Part shown: positions 1 to 22,616 of the stretch, in pieces
Layout: every line of letters starts with the position of its first letter
How positions within the stretch are numbered: position 1 is the first letter of the stretch
NCBI GenBank assembly: GCA_029060065.1
Contig: JAIDUT010000038.1
Span: 1 to 32,634 of the forward strand
DNA: 32,634 nucleotides
Source: Clostridia bacterium
GTDB taxonomy: Bacteria; Bacillota; Clostridia; Christensenellales; UBA3700
Reading direction: 5' to 3'
Program-made: the position numbers and the translations under genes
The notes under the pieces: model-generated
Database searches by the model: none
The model's input: only the letters and a program-made list of their open reading frames with translations
Told to the model about the DNA's origin: nothing

Positions 1-522
1 GCAAGAAAGTTGGGCAGAACAGCCGAAGAAAGAATGGCCATAATTAGAAATCAAGCCTCAGAACTATTGTGGTACGGTTCAATCGAGACCACTGTTGATA
101 GAGCAAAAGAGGTAAGAAGTTATGCCGAGAGCATGTTAACTCTCGCTATAAATACTTATGAAGATACTGTAAAGGTTCAAAAGACCGTAACCAACGACAA
201 GGGTGAAAAGGTCGTTATGGAGTTCGTAAACGACGGTCCTAGAAAGTTGGCTGCAAGAAGAAAACTTATGGCAAGCCTTAGAGATCTTCAAGAAATCAAG
301 GGCGACGGCGAAAGCAAGTCGGCTTACAAGGAGAGAACTAAAGACGTTAAGCATCCGCTTATCGAGAAGATTTTCAGAGAGCACGCAGTATTCTACGCAG
401 ACAGAGCTAACAAGCTCGGTCAAAAAGGCGGATATACTCGCATAATCAGACTTGGTCAAAGACGTGGCGACGGCGCTGAAATGGCAAAGTTGGAGCTTGT
501 AAGAAATACCGAAAAGAAGTAA
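1..522 (+). CDS. rplQ: 50S ribosomal protein L17, 5'-truncated by window start
   Basis: Reading frame open from base 1 (A-R-K-L-G-R-T-AEERMAIIRNQASELLWYGSIETT...), matching the L17 N-terminal pattern RKLGRTxxHRxAxLRN and C-terminal GGYTRIIRLGQRRGDGAEMA. The TTG at 10 is probably not the true start. Confidence 0.96.
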   Translation, partial: ARKLGRTAEERMAIIRNQASELLWYGSIETTVDRAKEVRSYAESMLTLAINTYEDTVKVQKTVTNDKGEKVVMEFVNDGPRKLAARRKLMASLRDLQEIKGDGESKSAYKERTKDVKHPLIEKIFREHAVFYADRANKLGQKGGYTRIIRLGQRRGDGAEMAKLELVRNTEKK

Positions 523-6883: not shown

Positions 6884-8629
6884 TTAATAATTGTATACGT
6901 GTTTTTTCTTCTTCGCGACGACGATTAATGTCACCGCAATAGCTATCGCTATTACCACACACGGGATAGTGATTACCAAAACAAGTTGCCACGACGTAAG
7001 GCCAGAAGCCTTAACGTTGGCAGTCCTAACGTATGCAGTTTTGCCCTCATAGTATACAGCCGTCCACTGGCTTTTTTTGTTGAATTTTTCTTTGAGATAT
7101 ACTTGAGTGCCCTCGGCTAGTTGAGCCACTTCTATAGCGTCTTCTTCGTTTTCAAAAGGCAATGCGTAAAGAGTTATATACTGTCCTAATTTTTTTGAAG
7201 TTAGTTTTACTGACTTTGATAGCGACGGCGCATAAAGCTCTGTATATTTCGAAACATCAACTGTTTGTATATATCCGTATATCGTCTTGCCCTTGTCTAC
7301 AAAGCCGACTTTATACCAACCCCAGGAGAAGTTGCCGTCCTGTCCGACATTGTCAATGAATACAAGTTGCATATTTATTGGAGCATCGAGGAGTTTCTCG
7401 CTTCCTGCGCCAACGAACGGATATTTGTATATAGCCGTATTTGGGTGAAGAGGTTGTAAAAACGAGCCGTGCTGACATTCTTCTTTAGCAGGACATAAAG
7501 TAATGTTTGCCGTCTTCTTGATATAACCGTATTGAGTTTTTCCCTCTTGAGCGTCATTATAGTATACATAAAGATAGTCGTCTCTTTCGCTCAAAGCAAT
7601 AAAATAGCTACTGCTTGGAATAATTCCCATTCTCTGCAAATGTCTTGGGGAAGAGTATAGCGTAACGTCAGCTCCGGCCTTGTATAGTTTGACAATATCG
7701 TATTCGGTTGGATGAGTATACACGTTGTTGTCAAAACATCCGTAGTATTCGAGATTGCCACCCGAATAGACGTACACATTGACGGCGTTGATATTGGATT
7801 TCGTGTAGACGTAATTAATATCGTTTACGCTGTCGTATGCCGAGCAAATTCTGCCGTTTGCATTAAGTCCGTCTGTTGTCAAGGTAGAAATCGAAGATGT
7901 GGATTTATCGTAATGATACACGCCGTTTGCGTTCAGAAGCAATATTTGACCGTTACTTACGCTTATGTCTATATAATCTCCCGTTCTTTTGTGGAAACTT
8001 GACAAGTCCGGGTAATCAAAGTTTTGTTCGTCTATTACGTAGAGGTCTCCGTCGATAATGCAATATAATACATTGTCATCAATGACAAAATCTTTGACGT
8101 CTTTATATAAACCGTCGATTAGACCTGTATTGGAAATAAAGAACGCGGAATTGCTTACATTGGGGTCTAGGGAAATAGAATTGACCTTATTGGTTTCCAT
8201 TGCGAAAAACTCGCCGTTTTGGTTGGCGTAAATACTTACGACGTAATTGAGAAATATATCCGTGGGGGTATAGCTGGTTACTTTTGCTATGCGCATATCG
8301 TTATACTCATACGCCCAAAGATATTTTTCATCTCCATTCTGGGCAAGCGCCAGTATATGCGTAGAGTTCATAGCAATATCCAAAAAGCCGTCGAATTGGC
8401 TTTTCTCTTCAAAACCCAACAATTTATTATCCTTGGCAAGATAAACACTTTTGCCGTTGGTGTAGGCAAAATAATCGCCGTAAGCCGTAAGCAAACTATC
8501 GTCTGCCAATGATACCAGTACGTCTACGTTTTCAGCGTTTGCCACGTCTTTCGCAGTAAATACGCCTACAAAACACAAGACTAAAGTCAAGCACAATATT
8601 ACGTATAAGCCAAAGATTTTTATTTTCAT
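6884..8629 (-). CDS. surface-anchored protein of unknown function: signal peptide, propeller-like beta-repeats, SH3b-like modules, C-terminal TM
   Basis: N-terminal signal; repeats such as YLWAYEYNDMRIAKV and LYCIIDGDLYVIDEQ; SH3b-like VYLKEKFNKKSQWTAVYYEGKTAYVRTANVK; TM WQLVLVITIPCVVIAIAIAVTLIVV then KKKKH. Confidence 0.7.
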   Translation of the reverse strand: MKIKIFGLYVILCLTLVLCFVGVFTAKDVANAENVDVLVSLADDSLLTAYGDYFAYTNGKSVYLAKDNKLLGFEEKSQFDGFLDIAMNSTHILALAQNGDEKYLWAYEYNDMRIAKVTSYTPTDIFLNYVVSIYANQNGEFFAMETNKVNSISLDPNVSNSAFFISNTGLIDGLYKDVKDFVIDDNVLYCIIDGDLYVIDEQNFDYPDLSSFHKRTGDYIDISVSNGQILLLNANGVYHYDKSTSSISTLTTDGLNANGRICSAYDSVNDINYVYTKSNINAVNVYVYSGGNLEYYGCFDNNVYTHPTEYDIVKLYKAGADVTLYSSPRHLQRMGIIPSSSYFIALSERDDYLYVYYNDAQEGKTQYGYIKKTANITLCPAKEECQHGSFLQPLHPNTAIYKYPFVGAGSEKLLDAPINMQLVFIDNVGQDGNFSWGWYKVGFVDKGKTIYGYIQTVDVSKYTELYAPSLSKSVKLTSKKLGQYITLYALPFENEEDAIEVAQLAEGTQVYLKEKFNKKSQWTAVYYEGKTAYVRTANVKASGLTSWQLVLVITIPCVVIAIAIAVTLIVVAKKKKHVYNY

Positions 8630-8635
8630 AAAAGT

Positions 8636-8664
8636 ATTATAACATACTTTAATTAAAAATTAAA
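8636..8664 (-). promoter_or_regulatory. promoter for the SH3/propeller surface protein
   Basis: Minus-strand TATAAT (8636-8641), 6 nt upstream of the ATG (8627-8629); the -35 is weak (TTTAAT-like). Confidence 0.5.
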
Positions 8665-8787
8665 ACAAAAAAATACATCATAATAAAGAAATATAATAAA
8701 GAAAGATTGAAAATCGGTGATAATTATGCTAAACTGTATTTGGAAATTAATGACCATGCGAGAATTATAGATATATATAAGGAATTT

Positions 8788-9735
8788 ATGTCGAAGAACA
8801 AGTTTTATCACAACAATAATAATAAGAAAAAGTTCGACGCGCAAGTCGAGGCGAAAAAGGTATTGGAAGCCAACAAAGGAAAGAGTCAAGACCTAATGAA
8901 ACCCATTGAGGAGCTTGGTCTTTCCGAAGCGACTTACAATGCGCTCAAAGCTGGCAGGATTAATATTGTGGCAGATCTTGCGTGCAGGACTTTTCAGCAG
9001 ATGTACAAGATACAAAATATCGGCAAAAAGAATTGCATAGAGATATCCAAAGCTATGTCCAAGTTGGGCGTGAATTTCGCGCAGGACGACGCGCAACAAT
9101 CTCAACCTACAAAGAATAATAATCAAAATTCTAAGAATTCTCAACAGAATTTATCTCGAGATAGGTCGCAAAACAATTTCGCTAAGGACCGCAGGGACAA
9201 CAATAACAAAGGGAAAAAACAAAGGAGCGAAAGTGATTCTCTCAACGAATATTTGAGCAGACAATACGCAGGTATGACAATGTCTGAGATAATTATGGGC
9301 AAGCGTCAGCGTCCTGCAGTGGAGAAGATTGAGAGACCTCCTCTCACGGAAAAGAGCCTAATCAAATTTTGCCGTAAAGGCAAATGGGGTTACAAAGATT
9401 GGAAGGGCAATGTCGTCGTGCCTCCTTCATATGAAGAAGCGTTCGGTTTTTTTGAAGAGAGAGCTTGCGTAGAAAAAGACGGGAAGTTAGGCTATATCGA
9501 CAGGGAAAATAATCTGATAATAGATTATAAGTATGACTGCGCTACTTCATTTAGCGAGGGACTTGCTTCGGTTACAGTTGGAGAGAAAAGCGGTTATATA
9601 GATTTAGAAGGCAATCTAATCGTGGACTTTATTTACGACATTGCCACACCGTTTTCAGACGGAAAAGCTATTGTAAGACAAAACGAACGTTGGGGAGTTT
9701 TGAGCAGAGAAAACCTCAGCGTATTTTGGAGATAA
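8788..9735 (+). CDS. RNA polymerase alpha-CTD-like (HhH) domain fused to WG-repeat domain
   Basis: PIEELGLSEATYNALKAGRINIVADLACRTFQQMYKIQNIGKKNCIEISKAMSKLGVNF resembles RpoA CTD; C-terminal WG repeats KWGYKDWKGNVVVPPSYEEAFGF / LGYIDRENNLIIDYKYDCATSF / SGYIDLEGNLIVDFIYDIATPF / RWGVL. ATG 8788 (RBS aagga) preferred over the TTG at 8707. Confidence 0.8.
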   Translation: MSKNKFYHNNNNKKKFDAQVEAKKVLEANKGKSQDLMKPIEELGLSEATYNALKAGRINIVADLACRTFQQMYKIQNIGKKNCIEISKAMSKLGVNFAQDDAQQSQPTKNNNQNSKNSQQNLSRDRSQNNFAKDRRDNNNKGKKQRSESDSLNEYLSRQYAGMTMSEIIMGKRQRPAVEKIERPPLTEKSLIKFCRKGKWGYKDWKGNVVVPPSYEEAFGFFEERACVEKDGKLGYIDRENNLIIDYKYDCATSFSEGLASVTVGEKSGYIDLEGNLIVDFIYDIATPFSDGKAIVRQNERWGVLSRENLSVFWR

Positions 9736-10156: not shown

Positions 10157-10191
10157 TAAAAAACAAGTCGCTTTTAAGCGACTTGTTTTTA
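10157..10191. terminator. bidirectional Rho-independent terminator between convergent genes
   Basis: aaaaacaagtcgctt/aagcgacttgttttt: perfect stem with A-run on one side and T-run on the other. Confidence 0.85.
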
Positions 10192-10206: not shown

Positions 10207-11268
10207 TTACTTCATTAAAGCGTCCTTCAAACTTTGGTCTATATTCATTTTATCCAACTTGGATTTGTCGTACGAAAACCACTGTTCGTATATATTATCG
10301 CTTGAGCCTTTAATAGTTCCAAGAATAGTGGCTTCCCATTTATTTTTGTTGATATACGTTCTGATAAGTCCGCACTCCCAAATCTCTATTTTTACGCGCT
10401 TTTGCGCATATCTGAATTTATTGATAGCTCCGTTTTCCAGCATATCGTCGTTGGAATACTTCAAAGTTTCGTCGTTGCAGTTGATTTCTGCTTCGAGATA
10501 GTATATGCCTGTTTCCGCATCGTATTTCAAAAGTCCCGCCGTGATTGGCTTTTCAGTATCATAATCGTCGGAAGTAAAGCCTTTATAGCTAAATCTAGAA
10601 TATGTCATTTTCATATATTCGTCGTAAGACATTTTGGTTGATTTAGGATTATTGAAGACGATGGCGTTTTGATCAGGGAATTTTAGTAAAGAGTCTTGGT
10701 TGCTTTTTCCGTTTTTGGAAAAGTAGAAATCTTGATTATTAGGGGAATAGACTCTTTTTGTAAAGTTAAGCGCTTTAGCGAGTATCGTAAAAGTAGCTTC
10801 GTTTACGTCTTTGCCTCTTTGCCCGTTTTTATTTAGTATGTACCCGTCTACGACAAGACCGTACGTATCGAAATAATATGTGTTATTGTCGAATATGCGG
10901 ATATCGCGCGTTTGCATAGAACCGACTATCGGTTCGCCGGCTATTACCATTTGCGCAACTCCCGAACCGTAAGCTCCGCCGGCAAAAAAATCGCAGTCGA
11001 TAAGATTTTGGTTGGCAAGTCTAATAATATATTCTATAGAATCGAGCACCGCTTGATCAGTCGTGTCGGTATCGCTTAGACTGATTTTAGTTTTATCTAC
11101 AGGGATTGCTTTCGCCATCGCTTCTTGCGTAGGCGCTTCAGCTAATCCGTCGAAGTTAAGATCTGCCTCGGCATAGTTGGCTTTTCCGGCACATCCGGAA
11201 AGTAAGACAACTATCAACGTCAATATAACGAGCATTGACGTTATAATAAGCGTCTTAATTTTTTTCAT
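10207..11268 (-). CDS. putative lipoprotein, unknown function
   Basis: Signal peptide MKKIKTLIITSMLVILTLIVVLLSGCAG with lipobox; 353 aa. Confidence 0.75.
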   Translation of the reverse strand: MKKIKTLIITSMLVILTLIVVLLSGCAGKANYAEADLNFDGLAEAPTQEAMAKAIPVDKTKISLSDTDTTDQAVLDSIEYIIRLANQNLIDCDFFAGGAYGSGVAQMVIAGEPIVGSMQTRDIRIFDNNTYYFDTYGLVVDGYILNKNGQRGKDVNEATFTILAKALNFTKRVYSPNNQDFYFSKNGKSNQDSLLKFPDQNAIVFNNPKSTKMSYDEYMKMTYSRFSYKGFTSDDYDTEKPITAGLLKYDAETGIYYLEAEINCNDETLKYSNDDMLENGAINKFRYAQKRVKIEIWECGLIRTYINKNKWEATILGTIKGSSDNIYEQWFSYDKSKLDKMNIDQSLKDALMK

Positions 11269-20522: not shown

Positions 20523-22616
20523 TTATACGTTTTTAACAGTGCCGTAAGAGAATTTGGTCAATTTGAGTATCAAGTCAATCTTCAATGCAATGTCTTTGTT
20601 GAGATTGATTTCTTGAGCCGTACCGGTCAAAGTATCAGCAGATTTAGCAGTAACAGTTACACCGTTTTTGGTGATTTCGACTTTAGCCGCAATGTTACCG
20701 CTCTTGTCGTTATCCGTTTTAGCAGTAGTTCTGTCAACAACGGTTACGATGTTCTTAATTGTAGCGTCAATCGTAGCGCCGTTCTTGTTAGCAACTGCCT
20801 TAACAGATATGGTCGTGTCGCCCAAGTTTTTAGTCTTTTGCTTTCCATTGTCGTCCTTATCCGGTACATATTTAGGGTCACCATTCTCATCTACGCCGTC
20901 TTGCTTGAGAAGTCCGTATTCGTTGGTGTTAACAGTGTGGTTGTTTACCGTAACGTCAATGATATTGTTGTCGCAGTTTACAAGTAAAGTCATGCTCTTG
21001 ACAAGTTTAGCAACTTCAGCCAATATTTTATCTTTATCTACGCCGTTGTTACCCGAAGTAGTGTTACCGCTTCCGCTACCGCTAGGAGCGCCACTTGGCG
21101 TACCGCTAGGAGTTCCGCTTGGGGTGTTGTCATCTCCATCGTCACCGGAAGGCAAGAAGTCTTTGACAACGTCGAGAACCTTATCAATAGATATGTCAGT
21201 TTCGCCCAAGAAATTAAATGATGATGCAAGGGAGCCCAACAAAGAGATATCCGGTGCCTGAACCATTAATTTGCCTGCTACTCTATGGATTGTAATGATA
21301 AGGTTTTTACTGTCCGTAGCGCTGGTATCAGTATTTTTGATCTCTATATTGAGATAATTTACAGCGTTCAAAATGCCTGTGATTGAACCCATGATATCTT
21401 TTTTGAAGTCGAATTTTGCGCCTATAAGTTTAACAGGGTCTGCATCTATAGCAAACTTAAGAGAATAATTTCCCTTAGGAATACCTATTGATTCTTCGCT
21501 TTCTCCCAACTTAAAGTTAATTGCGATTGCTTCATTAAGAGTAAGTTCGCCTTCAGCTGAGAAATTGAGAGCGTTTGTGGTCTTATAAGAGCTACCGCCG
21601 ATTGGGTTAATTCCGTAATCTTTTGCGTCATCGCCGAATGTGAAGTCAAAAGCAATGTCTACTACTGAATTCTTAGAGATATTAACGCGAAGGAAATCGG
21701 TATTGTCAACTCTCTTAATTCTAAGATCTTTTTTGTCCGCGTTCAACTTTGCTTCAAAGCCTTCAAGTCTTGCCTCTTCGAAGTTACCGCCAACTACGCC
21801 ACTCATTTTGAATATAAGATCGATAGTCAAATTAGGAAGAATAGATTTAAGATTGGAAGCTGTCACATCAAGACCAAGATCTGCAGTATATTCGTCTACT
21901 ACTTTCAAAAGTTCAGCTGCGTTACCCAAAAGTCTATCGAGTTTAAGACGGAGTAGAAGCGTTTGGCAGTTCTCGGATTGATAGAGAGAAGAGCTTACAG
22001 GGGTACCGTTCTTGTCAAGCTTGTCAGCCATACCCTTTATAAGATCAAAGTAACTGAAGATATTTGATACTTCGCCGGTAACTTTGTCGTTGATTTTTCC
22101 TGCTTCTTCGTCAGTAAGATACTTATTCTGATCTTTCAAAGTATCGGAAACTTTCAAGGCGTTGAGAGTAAAGTGCTTTGCGTTAGCGCCACTGCCGAGA
22201 TCAACGAAAACCATCTTATCGTAGCTAGCATAGTTACTTCCATGGATTTTGCTATAACCTTCGTTATAGTAAATGTTCAAGATGTTTGCGTTAGCGGTAG
22301 CGTCGACGAAAGACAAACCAAAAGAATTTGATTCCGTGCTTTTGCCGTCCAATGCCAAGTTAGCGTTCAATTTGATGACGTACTTGTTATTGTTTACGCT
22401 TAGCGCCAATTGAGCGCCAACCTTGAAATCATTGAGATTGCCGTCTTCTGCAGAATTATAAATTGCAGAAGTCAATGCGTCTTCAAGTGAAATTGACGTT
22501 TGGTTGTAACCGTCGATGTCTTCTTTATCTTTATCACAACCGACTAAAGCGGTAAGAGCAAGAGAAAGAACCATAACAAGTACCAACATCATGATCACGA
22601 GTTTTTTCTTGTTCAT
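20523..22616 (-). CDS. large putative lipoprotein with PSGT-rich low-complexity linker
   Basis: Signal MNKKKLVIMMLVLVMVLSLALTALVGCDKDKED with lipobox; 697 aa; internal PSGTPSGTPSGAPSGSGSG; RBS AGGAGG. Confidence 0.8.
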   Translation of the reverse strand: MNKKKLVIMMLVLVMVLSLALTALVGCDKDKEDIDGYNQTSISLEDALTSAIYNSAEDGNLNDFKVGAQLALSVNNNKYVIKLNANLALDGKSTESNSFGLSFVDATANANILNIYYNEGYSKIHGSNYASYDKMVFVDLGSGANAKHFTLNALKVSDTLKDQNKYLTDEEAGKINDKVTGEVSNIFSYFDLIKGMADKLDKNGTPVSSSLYQSENCQTLLLRLKLDRLLGNAAELLKVVDEYTADLGLDVTASNLKSILPNLTIDLIFKMSGVVGGNFEEARLEGFEAKLNADKKDLRIKRVDNTDFLRVNISKNSVVDIAFDFTFGDDAKDYGINPIGGSSYKTTNALNFSAEGELTLNEAIAINFKLGESEESIGIPKGNYSLKFAIDADPVKLIGAKFDFKKDIMGSITGILNAVNYLNIEIKNTDTSATDSKNLIITIHRVAGKLMVQAPDISLLGSLASSFNFLGETDISIDKVLDVVKDFLPSGDDGDDNTPSGTPSGTPSGAPSGSGSGNTTSGNNGVDKDKILAEVAKLVKSMTLLVNCDNNIIDVTVNNHTVNTNEYGLLKQDGVDENGDPKYVPDKDDNGKQKTKNLGDTTISVKAVANKNGATIDATIKNIVTVVDRTTAKTDNDKSGNIAAKVEITKNGVTVTAKSADTLTGTAQEINLNKDIALKIDLILKLTKFSYGTVKNV
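21061..21126 (-). repeat. degenerate tandem repeat encoding PSGT/PSGA linker
   Basis: accgctaggag/accgctaggag/ttccgcttgggg-type units encoding TPSGTPSGTPSGAPSGSGSG. Confidence 0.7.

What the first reader, a model, noticed from the sequence alone, without database searches (positions are those of the whole stretch)
8788..9735. RpoA alpha-CTD-like domain fused to WG repeats
The N-terminal part (PIEELGLSEATYNALKAGRINIVADLACRTFQQMYKIQNIGKKNCIEISKAMSKLGVNF) closely follows the bacterial RNA polymerase alpha C-terminal domain pattern (IEELxLSxRxYNxLKRxGIxTVxELxxxTxxxxxxxxNxGxKSxxEIxxxLxxxGL). It is joined through an Asn/Gln/Lys-rich disordered linker to about four WG (KWG) repeats. alphaCTD contacts UP-element DNA and activators. 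A free-standing alphaCTD tethered to a repeat domain could compete with or decorate RNA polymerase, or bind DNA or another partner. I do not know of a described function for this architecture. rpoA normally lies next to rplQ, so the parental gene is probably just upstream of this window. This is my best candidate for something undescribed here.
Basis: partly seen in the sequence, partly recalled or inferred. Interest (0 to 1): 0.72.

Follow-up and report, generated by a model that had tools for sequence, protein, structure and literature searches.

The report
RNA-polymerase-like domain on a WG protein
A group of uncultured gut Clostridia carries a conserved protein that joins a relative of RNA polymerase's DNA-touching tail domain, without that domain's key DNA-contact residues, to a small propeller-like repeat domain; its gene usually lies beside a gene for a membrane protein with a large outer part, and the job of the pair is not described in anything searched here.

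Summary
ORF 8788-9735 encodes 315 residues: a basic tail, an RpoA alpha-CTD-type domain (PF03118, E=1.5e-13; predicted fold 0.9 A from B. subtilis alpha-CTD), a basic disordered linker and a WG-repeat domain (E=1.3e-29). It is no chance fusion: the architecture occurs in 75 of 247 sampled genomes of the order (7 families), under purifying selection (dN/dS about 0.05), and was not found outside the order. Its alpha-CTD is one lineage, separate from RpoA. The UP-element reading is weakened: R265, N268, C269 and S299 are invariant in the order's RpoA (28/28) but kept in 9, 15, 0 and 0 of 82 family members. New here: the gene lies next to one for an extracellular propeller/SH3 single-pass membrane protein (window 6884-8629), in three different gene orders in different families (47 of 75 genomes within 2 kb, 52 within 10 kb). 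Best guess: a cytoplasmic nucleic-acid- or transcription-binding adaptor working with that envelope protein. The linkage is shown; the biochemistry is inferred. The assembly breaks inside rplQ, so this genome's own RpoA could not be read. Undescribed family built from known domains.

The parts
8788..9735 (+). alpha-CTD-like/WG fusion gene, 315 aa
   Evidence: orthologues
8788..8874 (+). basic N-terminal tail (residues 1-29), pI 9.8 here, median 10.3 in 82 orthologues
8875..9078 (+). RpoA alpha-CTD-type domain (residues 30-97); R265 position is Ala, N268 kept, S299 position is Asn
9079..9357 (+). basic disordered linker with a short helical motif (residues 98-190; helices 148-159 and 165-170)
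9358..9732 (+). WG-repeat domain, open propeller-like, acidic (pI 5.1; residues 191-315)
8707..8735 (+). extended -10 promoter-like site TTGAAA-N17-TAAACT preceded by TGC; the pattern recurs in the 12 genus loci aligned
8630..8787 (.). 158-bp divergent intergenic region shared with the partner gene
6884..8629 (-). conserved partner gene: signal peptide, extracellular beta-propeller, SH3-like domains, single C-terminal TM helix, basic tail, 581 aa
9751..10137 (+). cytidine deaminase (cdd), 15 nt downstream; found there in most of this genus, not next to the fusion gene elsewhere
10159..10190 (+). intrinsic-terminator-like hairpin after cdd

Best explanation
This is a conserved cytoplasmic protein family of one part of the order (by record titles, Christensenella-like uncultured Clostridia). 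Shown: an alpha-CTD-fold domain that has lost most classical DNA and sigma contact residues, set in a basic disordered N-half, is joined to an acidic WG propeller-like domain, and the gene is repeatedly next to a gene for a single-pass membrane protein with a large extracellular propeller/SH3 part. Inferred: the two proteins work together. The WG domain docks on a protein partner (most simply the short basic cytoplasmic tail of the membrane protein, or a complex around it), while the basic N-half with its modified alpha-CTD fold binds nucleic acid weakly or without sequence preference, or binds a protein of the transcription apparatus. The protein would be an adaptor between the cell envelope and DNA, RNA or the transcription machinery.
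For: alpha-CTD fold: Pfam, PDB sequences, Foldseek to 1z3e_B rmsd 0.9, TM-score 0.93 by target. No signal peptide or TM segment is apparent in the sequence. N-tail, alpha-CTD and linker are basic (median pI 10.3, 9.4, 9.7) and WG acidic (5.2) in 82 orthologues; ten RpoA alpha-CTDs of the order have median pI 7.2. K or R at 297 and 298 in 82/82 although R265 is lost. Neighbour linkage in 47 of 75 genomes within 2 kb and 52 within 10 kb: family f1 15 divergent under 2 kb plus 5 at 2-10 kb, f3 21/21 divergent, f16 3 tandem-upstream, f23 8 tandem-downstream; gaps of 1-3 nt in tandem loci. Partner topology. In order families lacking the fusion gene the partner lies beside Ppx/GppA, Maf, MreB-like and MinD-like genes, and in f7 the fusion gene itself lies beside an MreB-like gene. 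Purifying selection.
Against: No physical interaction is shown; adjacency can reflect co-regulation. The partner also exists in families without the fusion gene and is on another contig, far away or not found in 23 of 75 genomes (14, 3 and 6). Further neighbours differ by family (cdd, subtilase, ABC transporter). No DNA or RNA binding was tested; basic, disordered sequence alone is weak evidence. The pair was not modelled together.
Confidence: 0.35

Rival explanations
1. RNA-polymerase decoy or accessory: the alpha-CTD-like domain imitates RpoA's own CTD, binds the same activators or sigma region 4, and tethers the WG domain to RNA polymerase or competes with it.
For: Same fold and 36-41% identity to RpoA alpha-CTDs of the order; D or E at 258-259 often kept.
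Against: The E261 position is Gly in 46 of 82, the 285-288 surface is variable, and R265, N268, C269 and S299 are lost. The family domain is one separate lineage rather than tracking RpoA.
Confidence: 0.15
2. RNA- or ribosome-associated protein: the basic, N/Q/R-rich disordered N-half and the helix-hairpin-helix fold bind RNA; the alpha-CTD resemblance is only ancestry and transcription is not involved.
For: Basic tail and linker, RG- or NQ-rich linkers in several relatives, loss of DNA minor-groove residues.
Against: Helix-hairpin-helix folds more often bind duplex DNA (general knowledge); the linkage to an envelope protein is not explained.
Confidence: 0.2
3. Protein scaffold of envelope or cell-shape assembly: the alpha-CTD-like domain is a protein-protein module and no nucleic acid is bound.
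For: The partner is an extracytoplasmic propeller/SH3 protein; partner or fusion gene lies beside MreB-like, Maf and MinD-like genes in some families; a family-specific set of conserved residues (E264, T266, R284, Y290, Q293).
Against: A strongly basic N-half in nearly all members is more than a pure scaffold needs.
Confidence: 0.22
4. Generic helix-hairpin-helix domain with chance similarity to RpoA.
For: DNA ligase LigA also scores weakly with PF03118 (25 bits).
Against: 50.7 bits, RpoA-only hits in the PDB apart from one at E=0.36, and a structure match across the whole domain at 0.8-1.1 A.
Confidence: 0.03

Closest known systems
RNA polymerase alpha subunit C-terminal domain (PF03118)
   Same: Sequence profile, full fold, basic residues at 297-298, E302 mostly kept
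   Different: No alpha-NTD; R265, N268, C269, S299 and E261 not conserved; basic rather than near neutral; separate lineage
WG (KWG) repeat proteins (PF14903)
   Same: Three Pfam stretches, about four predicted units; WG-only relatives are common in the class
   Different: WG proteins found outside the order matched only the WG half of this profile; no function of the repeat was found in the papers searched
PglW of BREX (NF033442, PDLC02512)
   Same: Contains a region that aligns to this alpha-CTD-like domain (E=1.4e-6 and 4.3e-5)
   Different: No kinase part, far below the full-length cut-off; similarity limited to residues 21-144
Stray alpha-CTD-like domains in other Clostridia (G280, G281, G284, G289)
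   Same: PF03118 matches outside RpoA; one 144-aa protein was read (L185)
   Different: Sporadic; the one read has no WG domain; one of the G284 matches is DNA ligase LigA

Membership tests
RpoA alpha-CTD domain (PF03118) | Profile score above the curated cut-off | tested here: met
   50.7 bits against 23.8
RpoA alpha-CTD domain (PF03118) | alpha-CTD fold | tested here: met
   AlphaFold model; Foldseek rmsd 0.8-1.1 A over 61-66 residues
RpoA alpha-CTD domain (PF03118) | DNA-contact residues R265, N268, C269, S299 | tested here: not met
   9/82, 15/82, 0/82, 0/82 in the family against 28/28 each in RpoA of the order
RpoA alpha subunit | Assembly domain (alpha-NTD) on the same chain | tested here: not met
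   Only PF03118 and PF14903 above cut-off in the 315 aa; RpoA with its own CTD is a separate gene in relatives
RpoA alpha-CTD domain (PF03118) | Binds DNA or activators | not testable with these tools
   needs biochemistry
WG repeat proteins (PF14903) | WG repeats above the cut-off | tested here: met
   102.3 bits against 25.6, three stretches
BREX PglW | Curated full-length cut-off | tested here: not met
   26.3 bits against 990
Generic HhH family | Better profile score than PF03118 | tested here: not met
   no other HhH family with E<1 in Pfam

The most novel reading that the evidence does not exclude
An undescribed two-protein system in which an extracellular propeller/SH3 membrane protein signals to, or anchors, a cytoplasmic adaptor that reuses the RNA polymerase alpha-CTD fold with a new binding surface, linking the cell envelope to transcription or the chromosome.
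Probability: 0.2. Interest if true: 0.8.

Novelty: new variant of a known kind. Interest (0 to 1): 0.5.

Why it matters
It shows an alpha-CTD-type domain fixed outside RNA polymerase in a conserved protein of a large uncultured lineage, with the known DNA contacts replaced, and it names a conserved membrane partner. That turns two unannotated genes into a testable module and warns against annotating this protein as an RNA polymerase subunit.

Tried and rejected
Own RpoA for comparison: not in the assembly (no PF01000 match, contig starts inside rplQ), so RpoA of relatives was used. TTG 8707 start: rejected, it overlaps the -35 element. Viral origin: one WG-only relative in viral contigs and no PHROGs match. 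Plasmids: where annotated, the hits listed were RNA polymerase alpha subunits, plus unannotated Streptomyces records. BREX/PglW: only the local alpha-CTD-like stretch matches. Cytidine deaminase as functional partner: confined to this genus. Literature: no paper with alpha-CTD and WG repeats in the held library; most subscription papers are not covered. Foldseek on the partner gave only generic propellers. First ORF extraction on the wrong strand was redone.

Full report
What is there. The ORF at 8788-9735 (+) encodes 315 aa. Pfam finds RNA_pol_A_CTD at residues 30-91 (E=1.5e-13) and WG_beta_rep (E=1.3e-29, three stretches). The PDB sequence search returns RpoA chains from 8e-10 down and one glycosylase at 0.36. 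AlphaFold2 on a 25-sequence alignment gives pLDDT about 86-90 for most of the alpha-CTD region, about 95 for the WG region and about 40 for the linker. Foldseek aligns the first to alpha-CTD structures at 0.8-1.1 A and the second loosely to propellers of several kinds. A promoter-like site (TTGAAA-17-TGC-TAAACT) lies 53-81 nt upstream of the ATG and its pattern recurs in the genus; a terminator-like hairpin follows the downstream cdd gene.

It is a real, selected protein family. Against the nearest relative (dS 0.9) dN/dS is 0.056: alpha-CTD 0.044, WG 0.026, linker 0.20; dS is high or saturated in the other comparisons. The architecture occurs in 75 of 247 sampled genomes of the order, in seven of its families. 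Outside the order, 393 class genomes gave matches to the WG half only, and 399 phylum genomes gave no strong match. The 78 named relatives are uncultured Clostridia, many labelled Christensenella or Christensenellaceae. A tree of the alpha-CTD domains puts family members and RpoA on opposite sides of one branch (support 100/98, length 1.39); with 59 columns the inner order is largely unresolved.

Is it a working alpha-CTD? In E. coli numbering, RpoA of the same order is invariant (28/28) at R265, N268, C269, N294, G296, S299 and E302. The family has R265 in 9 of 82, N268 in 15, C269 in 0, N294 in 41, G296 in 52 (Asn in 26), S299 in 0, E302 in 70, and K or R at 297 and 298 in all 82. R265 and N268 are described as critical for DNA binding (PMC11434276). 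So the fold is kept and the known minor-groove contacts are not. The family has its own conserved positions (E264, T266, R284, Y290, Q293). What that surface binds is not known.

Neighbourhood. The divergent gene 6884-8629 (581 aa) encodes a signal peptide, a propeller-rich extracellular part, SH3-like domains and one C-terminal TM helix with a basic tail. Homologues lie beside the fusion gene in three arrangements: divergent (f1, f3); tandem upstream, with 2-3 nt gaps (L118, L123, L127, L153); and tandem downstream, with 1-nt gaps and the protein reduced to SH3 plus TM (L148, L151, L154). In total 47 of 75 genomes have the two within 2 kb and 52 within 10 kb. Linkage kept through three gene orders is better evidence than one inherited block, though members within a family are not independent. 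Where the fusion gene is absent the partner still occurs, and in several such loci it lies beside Ppx/GppA, Maf, MreB-like and MinD-like genes. In f7 the fusion gene lies beside an MreB-like gene. A subtilase follows it in L137 and similar-sized secreted proteins in other f3 loci; in f16 an ABC transporter follows.

Mechanism. Shown: domain content, charge pattern, loss of contact residues, neighbour linkage. Predicted from sequence and model: fold and topology. Inferred: a cytoplasmic adaptor whose basic alpha-CTD half engages nucleic acid or a transcription-related protein and whose WG half docks to the envelope partner or its complex. I give that 0.35, a pure envelope scaffold 0.22, an RNA-associated role 0.2, the decoy model 0.15 and a chance HhH 0.03.

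Limits. The RpoA of this very genome could not be examined. Partner detection in distant families rests on profile matches, some only to the SH3-TM end. Literature coverage is limited to the open library. Interaction and binding were not tested.

Noticed in passing
window 1-522: rplQ is cut at its 5' end by the contig start and carries an internal insertion of roughly 55 residues relative to the L17 profile (residues 15-167 cover profile positions 2-97).
   Followed up: partly
window 6884-8629: Extracellular propeller/SH3 single-pass membrane protein family, widespread in the order, with a nearly invariant GLT..Q motif at the start of the TM helix.
   Followed up: yes
L137 6126-7961: A subtilase-family secreted protein lies downstream of the fusion gene; similar-sized secreted proteins occupy the same place in other f3 loci.
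   Followed up: partly
L118, L122, L127, L153: Partner, fusion gene and an ABC-type transporter are codirectional and closely spaced.
   Followed up: partly
window 10207-11268: Putative lipoprotein (N-terminal signal ending in LLSGC) with no significant family match.
   Followed up: no
window 20523-22616: 697-aa ORF with no Pfam match at E<0.001.
   Followed up: no
L185: A free-standing 144-aa alpha-CTD-like protein in another clostridial family.
   Followed up: partly
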